Assembly: GCA_003223935.1 (NCBI GenBank)
Contig: QHXQ01000019.1
Location: forward strand, 145,847-209,846
Source of the DNA: Acidobacteriota bacterium
GTDB taxonomy: Bacteria; Acidobacteriota; Blastocatellia; Pyrinomonadales; Pyrinomonadaceae
Direction: 5' to 3'
DNA length: 64,000 nt
Every line of letters begins with the position of its first letter. Position 1 is the first letter of the stretch. Made by a program: the position numbers and the translations under genes. This document shows positions 1-3,492 of the stretch, in pieces. Under the pieces are notes generated by a model. It ran no database searches. It was given only the letters and a program-made list of their open reading frames with translations, and was not told where the DNA came from.

Positions 1-23
1 TCTTCGTTGAACTCATGTTGCTA

Positions 24-225
24 AATGATGAATGATGAACGATGAACGATGAGCTTCAAAACGCGAGCCATTGTAACATCGAACGCCCGAAACCGCGCTT
101 CGCGTTCTTTGCGTCTTTGCGTGAGGTTATTCATTCGTCTGTATCCTCCCCACGCAAAGACGCAAAGAGGGAACGCAAAGATAGCTTGCCTTTAGTTCAT
201 CATTCATCGCACATCGTTCATCGTT
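24..225. repeat. Heptad fold-back element: AATGATG/AACGATG x4 (24-51) facing CATCATT/CATCGTT x4 (198-225); a second nested inverted repeat of CTTTGCGT units lies inside (about 98-180)
   Basis: Direct reading: AATGATG AATGATG AACGATG AACGATG, then CATCATT CATCGCA CATCGTT CATCGTT. Internal CTTTGCGTCTTTGCGTG versus CACGCAAAGACGCAAAG. Confidence 0.85.
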
Positions 226-228
226 TTC

Positions 229-1053
229 TCACCCGATCATACGGCGGCGCAAACTTCGCATGGCCCATTCGGCGCAGGCGAGAGCAGTGATGATGAGGTA
301 GAGCAGTTCGAGCCAGTGCGTCCAACGCAGTTGCCCGATCAAGAGTGCGCGCGTCAGGTCAATCGCGCTGGTGATGGGGATGAGCCAAGCGATGGCCTGC
401 AAGGGCGTGGGCAGCACGCCCACGGGAAACCAGACGCCGCAGAGAAAGATGGCGGAGAAGAAGAGGGCGATGTAGAGGTTGTAAGAGTCTATGTCGTGTA
501 TGTGCGCGGTGACGCCGAGCGAGAGCGCGCCAGTGAAGAAGCTACCGGCGAGGAGCGGCAGCGGCACGAGCAAGGCCCACCAAGACTCGGCCGCGCCGAA
601 GCATGTGAGCACGAGCATGATGATGAGCGCGTCAATCAGAGATTTCGACGCGGCCCAACAGATTTCGGCGCAGGCGAGCGACTCGGCCTCGACCGGCGTG
701 GCGAGGATCGCGTCAAAGGTCGCTTGATAGACCATGCGAAAGTAAGAGCCGTAAGCCGTCTCAAACATGGCGCGCGAGAGACAAGCGAAACCGAGCACGC
801 CCGCGCCGACAAACGCGAGATAAGGCACGCCCGCGACACGCGCAGCAATGAGCGAGCCGACGCCCCAGCCGAACGCAAAGACCATAAAGACCGGCTCGAT
901 CAGAGGCGCAGCCAACTCCATCTTCCAGAGCCGCAGATAGACCTCTAAATGTCTCTGCCAGACGGCGAACGCATCGCGCAAGTGGACACGTGCGAACGCC
1001 GTCCGCAATGAAGCAGACCTGTTGCTAACGGTTGAATCAATCATTGCTGCCAA
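229..1053 (-). CDS. ABC-2 type transporter permease (NodJ/DrrB-like)
   Basis: About 6 hydrophobic segments; follows an ABC ATPase gene on the same strand; ABC-2 permease-like sequence (GVWFPVGVLPTPLQAIAWLIPITSAIDLTRALLIG). Confidence 0.85.
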   Translation of the reverse strand: MAAMIDSTVSNRSASLRTAFARVHLRDAFAVWQRHLEVYLRLWKMELAAPLIEPVFMVFAFGWGVGSLIAARVAGVPYLAFVGAGVLGFACLSRAMFETAYGSYFRMVYQATFDAILATPVEAESLACAEICWAASKSLIDALIIMLVLTCFGAAESWWALLVPLPLLAGSFFTGALSLGVTAHIHDIDSYNLYIALFFSAIFLCGVWFPVGVLPTPLQAIAWLIPITSAIDLTRALLIGQLRWTHWLELLYLIITALACAEWAMRSLRRRMIG

Positions 1054-1065
1054 CTGAATCCGCCA

Positions 1066-1572
1066 TCATTCATTAAAAGGAAACTCGCGGCGTTCGATGA
1101 GCGCAAGCAACTCTATGAGCGCGCGGCGGACTTGCGCGCGCAACTCTGTCGAATAGTTGAACTCTTCAGCGTGGCGTGCGAAATCGTCTTCATCAAGCAC
1201 GCGATAACTAAAATCAGGCGCGACGAGCACGTCAATGTCTAGGTCAATGAAACTTAACACTCGGCCGTCGAAGCGCGCGGGCTGATTGAGGTTGCAATAG
1301 TAGTTGCGCAAGCGCCCGTCCGGTTCGCGGAAACGAAAGACGCTGTACCAACGATCCGTCCAATAGTATTCGGTGCTGAGTGTGCCGCGCGCGATCAGTC
1401 CGAGCAGAGGGTGTTGCACCTCTTCGACAAAGACGCCGTCGAGGACGACGAGCGCGCCCGTCTGCTCAACCAGTCGCGCGTCCCAACGGCGATGCAGCCG
1501 ACCATCGAGTTTGCGCGCGTGGACGATGATAGGCACATCCGTCGTTGCTTGCGCATGCAGTTCACTCGTCAT
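1066..1572 (-). CDS. DUF402-like domain protein
   Basis: ORF with YYWTDRWYSVFRFREPDGRLRNYYCNLNQPARFDGRVLSFIDLDIDVLVAPDFSYRVLDEDDF, DUF402-like pattern; overlaps the upstream ATPase gene by 11 nt. Confidence 0.7.
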   Translation of the reverse strand: MTSELHAQATTDVPIIVHARKLDGRLHRRWDARLVEQTGALVVLDGVFVEEVQHPLLGLIARGTLSTEYYWTDRWYSVFRFREPDGRLRNYYCNLNQPARFDGRVLSFIDLDIDVLVAPDFSYRVLDEDDFARHAEEFNYSTELRAQVRRALIELLALIERREFPFNE

Positions 1573-2548
1573 GCGCCGTCAATCCTTCCTCCGGCGTGTC
1601 GCCGACGATGTCTAGGAAGACGTCTTCAAGATTGGCCGGGCGCAGGAAGGTGCGCGGGGCAGGGTAGTGCTTCATCAGAGGCATCAACGCATCTGGTGTT
1701 GCGGCAAAGTAGAGATGCGCGCCTGCGCGTGTGAGCGCGCGCACGTGTGCCGTGGTAGATAAGAGCGGCGCGGCACCCGCGTCGCGCACTTCAAGCGCGT
1801 AGTGTGCGAAGCGCGCGGCGATCAGTTCGCGCGGCGAACCGGCGGCGAGCACGCGCCCGCGCCCGATGATGAGCAGACGATCACAGAGCCGCTCGGCTTC
1901 GTCCATATAATGCGTGGAGATGATGAGCGTCAGCCCGGTCTGCCGGCGCAACTCTTCGAGGCGCTGCCAGATTTCCTGTCGCACTTGCGGATCGAGGCCC
2001 GTCGTCGGTTCATCAAGCACGAGCAGGCGCGGCTCATGCAAGAGCGCACGCGCGATCATCAGCCGCCGCTTCATGCCGCCCGATAACTCTTCGACGCGCG
2101 CGTCGGCGCGCTCGCTCATGCCGATGAAGGCGAGTAGTTCAACAGTCTTTGTGAGCGCACGGGCGCGCGGCAGATGAAAATAGCGCGCATAGACGAGCAG
2201 GTTCTGGCGGACTGAAAGATCAGGATCAAGATTGTTCTCTTGCGAAACGACGCCGAGCATTGAGCGAATCGCGCGCCCGGCGCGGCGCACGTCTAAGCCT
2301 TCGACCGAGAGCGCGCCCGCCGTCAGAGGCGTGCGGCAAGCGATCATGCGCATGGTCGTTGACTTGCCCGCACCGTTCGGCCCCAGCAGGCCGAACGCCT
2401 CACCGCGCGCGACCGTGAAATCAATCGCGTCAACGGCTCTGCGCATGCCATAGACTTTAGTGAGGCCCTGCGCCTCAACGACCGGTTCGGCCTTGACGGC
2501 AGGCTCTCGTGCACGTGGCGCAGGCGCAATTTCGATCTCTGTGCTCAT
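1562..2548 (-). CDS. ABC transporter ATP-binding protein (NodI/CcmA-like)
   Basis: Walker A GPNGAGKST, signature LSGGMKRRL, Walker B LLVLDEPTTGLD. ATG at 2548 preferred over the TTG at 2563 in the ORF track. Confidence 0.92.
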   Translation of the reverse strand: MSTEIEIAPAPRAREPAVKAEPVVEAQGLTKVYGMRRAVDAIDFTVARGEAFGLLGPNGAGKSTTMRMIACRTPLTAGALSVEGLDVRRAGRAIRSMLGVVSQENNLDPDLSVRQNLLVYARYFHLPRARALTKTVELLAFIGMSERADARVEELSGGMKRRLMIARALLHEPRLLVLDEPTTGLDPQVRQEIWQRLEELRRQTGLTLIISTHYMDEAERLCDRLLIIGRGRVLAAGSPRELIAARFAHYALEVRDAGAAPLLSTTAHVRALTRAGAHLYFAATPDALMPLMKHYPAPRTFLRPANLEDVFLDIVGDTPEEGLTAHDE

Positions 2549-2557
2549 CTCTGATGA

Positions 2558-2627
2558 GTTCAAAGTTTAAGGTTCAATGTTCAAGGTTGTCCAATCTTGA
2601 GCTTTGAACCTTAAACTTTGAACCTTG
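2558..2627. repeat. Heptad fold-back element GTTCAAA GTTTAAG GTTCAAT GTTCAAG / TTTGAAC CTTAAAC TTTGAAC CTTG
   Basis: Direct reading; the variant unit GTTTAAG is matched by CTTAAAC at the corresponding place in the opposite arm. Confidence 0.88.
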
Positions 2628-2645: not shown

Positions 2646-3425
2646 TCAACGCGCGCGGACAAAATTGCGCAGCACGCCAACGCCTTCGACTTCGACTTCG
2701 ACCGTGTCACCGGCCGCAAGTGGCCCGACGCCTGCGGGTGTGCCGGTGGCGATCAGGTCGCCGGGTTCCATGGTCATGATGTTTGAGATGTAGCGGATGA
2801 GGAAGGGGATGGGGAAGGCCATCGCGCTGGTGCGCCCTTGTTGCCTGAGCTCTCTGTTGACGCGCGTGGTGACTGCGACGTCCAAGGGATCGAGTTCGGT
2901 TTCGATGTAAGGGCCGACGGGGCAGAAGGTGTCGAAAGATTTGGCGCGGGTGAACTGCACGTCTTTGCGTTGCAGGTCGCGCGCTGTCACGTCGTTGAGG
3001 CAGGTGTAGCCGAGCACGTAGTCGAGCGGATCGTCTGCCGCACTCAAACGCCGCGCTTGGCGTCCGATAACGACAGCGAGTTCGCCTTCATGTTCGACCC
3101 GCTCAGAAGCGGCGGGCAACTCGATGGTCGCGTCGGGGCCGATGAGCGCCGACGGAGCTTTGAGAAAGAGCAGCGGCTCGTCGGGCATCGGGTTGCCGAG
3201 TTCGGCCGCGTGCGCCAGATAGTTGCGCCCGACGCAGACGATCTTCGAGGGCGTGACGGGCACGATGAGCGTCGCTTCGTTGAGCGCACAGGCCGGCCCG
3301 GTCTCAGGCGGCGCAAACGTGAGACGGAAGATTTCATCAGCCGCGAGCGGGAAAATCTCCGCGCCGACGACGAACCCGTAGCGCGGCTCAACAGCCGAGC
3401 GTGTAGAGTAGCGGCAGAGTTTCAT
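2646..3425 (-). CDS. Fumarylacetoacetate hydrolase family protein
   Basis: Motifs KIVCVGRNYLAHAAELGN, FLKAPSALIGP, EGELAVVIGR, GYTCLNDVTARDLQ, GDLIATGTPAGVG. Confidence 0.92.
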   Translation of the reverse strand: MKLCRYSTRSAVEPRYGFVVGAEIFPLAADEIFRLTFAPPETGPACALNEATLIVPVTPSKIVCVGRNYLAHAAELGNPMPDEPLLFLKAPSALIGPDATIELPAASERVEHEGELAVVIGRQARRLSAADDPLDYVLGYTCLNDVTARDLQRKDVQFTRAKSFDTFCPVGPYIETELDPLDVAVTTRVNRELRQQGRTSAMAFPIPFLIRYISNIMTMEPGDLIATGTPAGVGPLAAGDTVEVEVEGVGVLRNFVRAR

Positions 3426-3492
3426 GTTGCTGCTCAGGCCGCGCGGGCGGCGCACTGAGCATCTATGCGAACCGCGCGGCCTGAGTTTATCT

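What the first reader, a model, noticed from the sequence alone, without database searches (positions are those of the whole stretch)
2558..2627. Variant heptads are mirrored between the two arms (2.6 kb)
Left arm GTTCAAA GTTTAAG GTTCAAT; the reverse complement of the right arm reads GTTCAAA GTTTAAG GTTCAAA. The odd unit GTTTAAG occurs in both arms at matching positions. Independent slippage in each arm would not give this; it suggests one arm was copied from the other (template switching or fold-back synthesis) or compensatory selection on the stem.
Basis: seen in the sequence. Interest (0 to 1): 0.6.

Follow-up and report, generated by a model that had tools for sequence, protein, structure and literature searches.

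The report
Mirror-matched heptad hairpins after stop codons
The odd repeat unit really is mirrored in both arms of this hairpin; it belongs to a large class of 7-base-repeat hairpins that sit just after genes in a soil-bacterium family, whose two arms stay matched to each other and whose sequence has been swapped at the same site in related species.

Summary
In detail: arms 2558-2585 and 2596-2623 match at 26 of 28 positions, and GTTTAAG (2565-2571, 2610-2616) is mirrored in register. The locus is one of 121 fold-back heptad loci found in 1.6 Mb of a Pyrinomonadaceae (Acidobacteriota) genome. Within-locus mirroring exceeds cross-locus pairings (z=9.7, 0/20,000) and unit-order shuffles (z=3.5), and replicates in three further samples. 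By itself this locus is weak (p=0.18), because GTTTAAG is a family-wide variant (26 copies, 19 loci, 6 with both arms), so its mirroring may be inherited.

Best reading: dispersed palindromic elements (arms up to about 32 bp, heptad-built) lie directly after stop codons (88 of 104 within 15 nt), and one arm is recopied from the other. An orthologous pair shows six substitutions mirrored in both arms. Mismatches show no G-U excess on the transcript strand, which disfavours RNA compensation. New observation: in two congeneric species, 9 of 66 orthologous spacers carry a hairpin in both (Fisher 5e-8), yet five of the nine have a different heptad family. No REP transposase was found in the copy-rich genomes. 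How copies move is unknown.

The parts
2558..2585 (+). left arm, four heptads GTTCAAA GTTTAAG GTTCAAT GTTCAAG
   Evidence: sequence; tandem array
2596..2623 (-). right arm; its reverse complement reads GTTCAAA GTTTAAG GTTCAAA GCTCAAG
   Evidence: sequence; 26/28 identical to the left arm; folds with it
2565..2571 (+). odd unit GTTTAAG in the left arm
   Evidence: genome-wide census of the unit, 26 copies at 19 loci
2610..2616 (-). odd unit GTTTAAG in the right arm, paired in register with the left one
2586..2595 (.). loop between the arms
   Evidence: unpaired in the fold
2646..3455 (-). upstream gene in the transcript: fumarylacetoacetate-hydrolase-like protein, stop codon at 2646-2648
   Evidence: open reading frame; relatives at 61-69% identity in many Pyrinomonadaceae
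1562..2548 (-). downstream gene in the transcript: ABC transporter ATP-binding protein, probable ATG at 2548-2546
   Evidence: open reading frame; the same gene follows the FAH gene more distantly in L189, L201-L203

Best explanation
The feature is one copy of a dispersed class of small palindromic elements ('fold-back heptads') of Pyrinomonadaceae: two inverted arms of up to about 32 bp built of 7-bp units around a short, mostly A/T-rich loop, lodged between a stop codon and the next gene. Shown: dispersal, fixed arm polarity, stop-codon position, arm-to-arm matching beyond chance, and concerted change of both arms at an orthologous locus. Inferred: when DNA polymerase passes the hairpin, the nascent strand folds back and copies one arm from the other (quasipalindrome template switching). 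This rewrites a variant unit into both arms, and mirrored copies then spread to other sites. At this locus the mirrored GTTTAAG is either such a copy event or inherited from an already mirrored founder; the data do not say which.
For: Within-locus mirroring over cross-locus pairings z = 9.65, 0/20,000, unit order z = 3.54, 0/400, replicated in relatives. Departures from a tight family consensus are mirrored 8 times vs 1.15 expected, p = 5e-5; two variants censused genome-wide in G034 and G055 give 8 vs 3.4, 4 vs 1.2, 7 vs 1.5 and 4 vs 0.6 mirrored pairs. An orthologous spacer has GGTTTTGGGTGTTAGGCGTTGGGTGTTGGGT in G034 and GGTTCTGGGTGCTAGGTGCTGGGTTCTGGGT in G055, each matched 31/31 to its own right arm: six paired substitutions and no unpaired one. 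No G-U excess. Dispersal: 216 and 377 copies of one 32-nt arm. Position next to stop codons.
Against: Most copies of a censused variant are still in one arm only (for example 35 of 51 GCAGACG arms in G055), so copying is partial or rare. Arm identity does not fall with loop length (0.07 mismatches per bp in all bins), whereas template switching is reported to favour short spacers (PMC8604942). In the GTCAGTG family the loop has a preferred orientation relative to transcription, 12 vs 2, which argues against frequent spacer inversion. No machinery for dispersal was found.
Confidence: 0.6

Rival explanations
1. Compensatory selection on an RNA stem: the hairpin in the mRNA between stop and start codon is functional, so a change in one arm is followed by the matching change in the other.
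For: Stop-codon position and near absence from divergent spacers; hairpin slots conserved between species while their sequence changes; strong folding.
Against: No excess of G-U over A-C mismatches on the transcribed strand: 49 vs 71 in the window genome, 76 vs 97 over all genomes. Six paired and no unpaired substitutions at one orthologous site would need twelve separate substitutions.
Confidence: 0.2
2. Inheritance only: each family began as a mirrored palindrome and was dispersed; arms are not corrected afterwards.
For: Family consensus arms are already mirrored: CGGTGGT in the GTCAGTG family, GCAGATG in the GCAGTAG family, the recurrent GTTCAAA-GTTTAAG block. Mirrored variants recur with the same arm spacing (97-99, 57-58, 44-45 nt) at several loci, as expected of dispersed subfamilies.
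Against: Without later correction, left and right arm of one locus should be no closer than arms of different loci of the family; they are much closer. Every distinct mirrored variant needs at least one copying event.
Confidence: 0.12
3. Independent slippage plus chance: mirrored units reflect few unit types and free choice of register.
For: For this locus alone p = 0.18; in the sampled GTTCAAG family the 2x2 table for GTTTAAG is not significant (4 both, 6 one, 8 none; p = 0.15).
Against: Rejected across loci in four sample sets.
Confidence: 0.05

Closest known systems
Heptameric GGGAATC repeats of Xanthomonas and GGGGA(C/T)T of Nostoc (PMC4692102)
   Same: heptad tandem repeats, intergenic, closer to the upstream ORF end, 70-75 inverted pairs per Xanthomonas genome in convergent orientation, repeats between the same genes vary between species
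   Different: one G-rich unit per genome there, many unit families here; nearly all loci here are inverted pairs; mirrored variant units and family replacement at a site were not reported in the parts read
P6b stem of the cyanobacterial tRNA-Leu group I intron (PMC4476775)
   Same: hairpin stem built of heptanucleotide repeats; two unrelated repeat classes replace each other repeatedly at the same site while the secondary structure stays alike
   Different: a single intron locus there; hundreds of dispersed intergenic loci here
Quasipalindrome-associated template switching (PMC8604942, PMC7202029)
   Same: homogenises the arms of inverted repeats by copying one from the other
   Different: a mutation process known from reporters and yeast coding sequence; here invoked for a dispersed repeat class, with no effect of loop length seen
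REP/BIME elements and RAYT transposases (PMC3733652, PMC12306157)
   Same: high-copy palindromes, extragenic, often touching stop codons
   Different: heptad-periodic arms up to about 32 bp; no Y1 transposase in G034, G055 or G010

Membership tests
REP/RAYT system | REP-associated tyrosine (Y1) transposase in the genome | tested here: not met
   PF01797 absent from G034, G055 and G010 although G034 and G055 carry hundreds of arm copies, present in G021 where no element was seen in 60 kb; the strong window-genome hit looks like an ordinary IS200-type gene with no heptads in the stretch read
REP/RAYT system | GTAG- or CGTC-tagged 20-40 bp palindrome | tested here: not met
   by reading: arms are heptad tandem arrays of about 30 bp with no common GTAG or CGTC tag
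MITE | terminal inverted repeats with target-site duplication and a parent transposon | tested here: inconclusive
   inverted arms are present; filled/empty comparisons show no clear target duplication by eye; no parent element was sought beyond PF01797
Intrinsic transcription terminator | stem followed by a U-tract on the transcribed side | tested here: not met
   TTTT within 10 nt after the stem in 14%, AAAA within 10 nt before it in 13%: symmetric, no U-tract bias
Quasipalindrome template switching | arms more alike than independent evolution allows, changes copied without wobble intermediates | tested here: met
Quasipalindrome template switching | preference for short spacers and occasional spacer inversion | tested here: not met
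   no dependence of arm identity on loop length; loop orientation biased 12 to 2 in one family. These may be limits of the statistic, since one old event suffices
Xanthomonas/Nostoc-type heptameric repeats | excess of 7-nt tandem repeats over other periods, mostly intergenic | tested here: met
   170 period-7 arrays vs at most 21 for other base periods (period 14 is its double); 2 of 121 loci inside called genes

The most novel reading that the evidence does not exclude
Many spacers after genes in Pyrinomonadaceae are conserved 'hairpin slots': site, size and stem-loop form persist between species while the heptad family filling them is repeatedly replaced, and each new stem is written in both arms by fold-back copying. 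The stem sequence would be free and only its self-complementarity and position kept.
Probability: 0.35. Interest if true: 0.8.

Novelty: new variant of a known kind. Interest (0 to 1): 0.6.

Why it matters
Hundreds of dispersed hairpins per genome, each with a built-in record (mirrored or unmirrored variants), make arm-to-arm copying in inverted repeats measurable in nature. The conserved slots with swapped heptad families pose a testable question: is the hairpin selected for its shape, or is it a parasite with a very narrow target beside stop codons? It would also give a wider setting to the class swaps in the Nostoc P6b stem and to the heptamer excess noted in several bacteria.

Tried and rejected
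A first score test gave a weak overall signal and none for the GTTCAAG family; it was replaced by a likelihood test that weights variable positions. RAYT/REP mobilisation: no transposase in copy-rich genomes, and the IS200-like gene of the window genome is unaccompanied by heptads in the stretch read. Intrinsic terminators: no U-tract asymmetry. Distance-dependent copying: no loop-length effect. Arm-length coupling: lengths of the two arms are uncorrelated (rho = 0.04), but arm ends are set by a detection threshold, so nothing was concluded. Rfam: no hit. Some first stretches were chosen at GTTCAAG hits, which biases density but not the permutation tests. Genes were called with a simple codon-score script, so stop and start distances are approximate.

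Full report
OBSERVATION. The sequence is as described. The element fills the spacer between two genes on the minus strand: a fumarylacetoacetate-hydrolase-like gene (FAH) ending at 2646 and an ABC ATPase gene with probable start at 2548. The transcribed strand folds into one stable hairpin (-37.2 kcal/mol, z = -7.05). There is no Rfam match in the window.

SETTING. The window lies in contig C76 of a 5.27-Mb draft. Its nearest named relatives by the FAH protein are Pyrinomonadaceae MAGs (Acidobacteriota). In 1.24 Mb of this genome, period-7 arrays number 170, against 0 to 21 for other base periods from 3 to 15; the 83 at period 14 are the double of 7. Neighbouring arrays are inverted in 120 cases and direct in 3; the G-rich arm is on the left in 107 of 120. 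Many unit families coexist: GTTCAAG, GTCAGTG, GTCAGAG, GTGACGA, GATGAAC, CAGTTTT, GGCAGTA and others. Of 112 loci placed between called genes, 94 are between co-directional genes, 10 convergent and 8 divergent, against 517, 82 and 119 for all spacers of 60 nt or more. Between co-directional genes the element begins a median 3.5 nt after the stop codon and ends a median 12 nt before the next start; 88 of 104 tandem or convergent loci lie within 15 nt of a stop.

Loci were defined by adjacent arrays with compatible consensus units only, without using arm alignment. The best mirrored pairing of left and right arm was scored against pairings of arms from different loci of the same family: z = 9.65, 0 of 20,000 permutations; GTTCAAG family alone z = 2.74, p = 0.006. 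Shuffling the order of whole units inside one arm, which keeps locus composition, gives z = 3.54, 0 of 400. The two tests repeat in G034 (z = 6.20 and 2.35), G055 (5.07 and 3.31) and G015+G019 (3.56 and 3.00). So variant units are mirrored more than chance. For the finding's locus alone the shuffle p is 0.18.

WHY THIS LOCUS IS WEAK EVIDENCE. GTTTAAG followed by GTT occurs 26 times in the whole genome, at 19 loci; six have it in both arms (C14, C46, C57, C73, C76 = this one, C113). The four of these that fall in the analysed sample pair in register. With 25 variant arms among an assumed 50 loci about 3 mirrored loci are expected and six or more has p = 0.03; the number of loci is an estimate and p runs from 0.10 to 0.004 for 40 to 75 loci. 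The block GTTCAAA-GTTTAAG-GTTCAA recurs, while loops differ between loci. Stronger cases are L121 (GTGCAAG GTGCAAA GTTTAAG mirrored) and L132 (GTTTAAG GTTCAAG GTTGCAG mirrored across a longer loop).

DISPERSAL. The GTCAGTG family has a consensus element with mirrored CGGTGGT and a recognisable loop. In G034 and G055 (one genus) the arm CAGTAGGCAGTAGGCAGATGGCAGTAGGCAGT occurs 216 and 377 times with up to three mismatches. Mirroring in a family consensus is thus inherited by copies. But changes that depart from the consensus are also mirrored: 8 at inner positions vs 1.15 expected in 15 loci (p = 5e-5). Genome-wide counts of two variants also exceed expectation: GCAGACG 8 vs 3.4 pairs in G055 and 4 vs 1.2 in G034; GGCGGT 7 vs 1.5 and 4 vs 0.6 (arm totals taken). 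Recurrent spacings show that some of these pairs are copies of mirrored subfamilies.

COPYING OR COMPENSATION. Oriented by transcription, transition mismatches are 76 G-U and 97 A-C (p = 0.13; window genome alone 49 vs 71). Selection on an RNA stem should tolerate G-U and so leave an excess. Together with the six mirrored substitutions and no single-arm ones between the G034 and G055 copies at one orthologous spacer, this favours one-step arm copying, as described for inverted repeats in general (PMC8604942). Arm identity is independent of loop length, which speaks against the simplest form of that model.

SLOTS CONSERVED, SEQUENCE SWAPPED. G034:C137 and G055:C92 are syntenic over most of 97 kb (main blocks about 81-92% identical). 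Of 66 orthologous spacers, 9 hold a fold-back heptad hairpin in both species, 0 only in G034, 5 only in G055, 52 in neither (Fisher p = 5e-8). By my reading five of the nine pairs are different heptad families at the same site, for example GTGATGA vs GTGAATA, CAGTTTT vs GGTGAAT, CCGTGAA vs GTGATAA. In a four-species comparison one spacer holds GGGTTTT, GGGTTCT, GATGTCG-like and AAGGCAA stems; another holds CAGTTTT (G034), GGTGAAT (G055), GTAGTCG and GTAGTCA stems. The GATGTCG-like stem in G048 was recognised by eye in the alignment and not by the detector. Empty sites exist too, for example a 7-nt spacer facing a 71-nt element. In at least one swap the new copy carries a family-type long loop (about 59 nt), so the whole element was replaced. 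Whether slots persist by selection for a hairpin or by narrow target choice is open. In the FAH-bearing records of other phyla no fold-back locus was seen.

FUNCTION. Inference only: a stop-proximal hairpin could slow ribosomes or shape mRNA ends (E. coli REPs within 15 nt of a stop are reported to do so, PMC12306157), or the elements may be tolerated passengers. No expression data were available.

STATUS OF STEPS. Shown: mirroring, dispersal, stop-codon position, conserved slots, swapped families. Inferred: template switching as the copying step, direction of copying, and the way copies reach new sites.

Noticed in passing
G034:C137 and G055:C92, loci L269-L272 and L298-L301: Orthologous spacers keep a heptad hairpin between congeneric species but its heptad family is often different at the same site.
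   Followed up: partly
window 1-260: GATGAAT-type heptad arms (27-52 and 195-225) bracket a second inverted pair of 8-mer repeats (TCTTTGCG at 106-122, ACGCAAAG at 152-168): nested fold-backs with different period.
   Followed up: no
L156:4864, L157:6470, L170:4355: Long loops between heptad arms contain a separate GC-rich palindrome, as if the arms bracket another hairpin.
   Followed up: no
loops of fold-back loci in five genomes: Loops of different heptad families share A-rich motifs such as AAAGC and AAGAC well above shuffled loops, hinting at a common core; in the GTCAGTG family the loop has a preferred orientation to transcription, 12 vs 2.
   Followed up: partly
L189:11255-11345: In another Pyrinomonadaceae genome the spacer before the homologous ABC gene also holds a heptad hairpin, of the unit GATTTTA, with the order of variant units largely mirrored.
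   Followed up: partly
left arms of fold-back loci: Arm polarity is fixed: the G-rich arm is on the left in 107 of 120 loci. The Xanthomonas GGGAATC pairs are also described as always convergent (PMC4692102).
   Followed up: no
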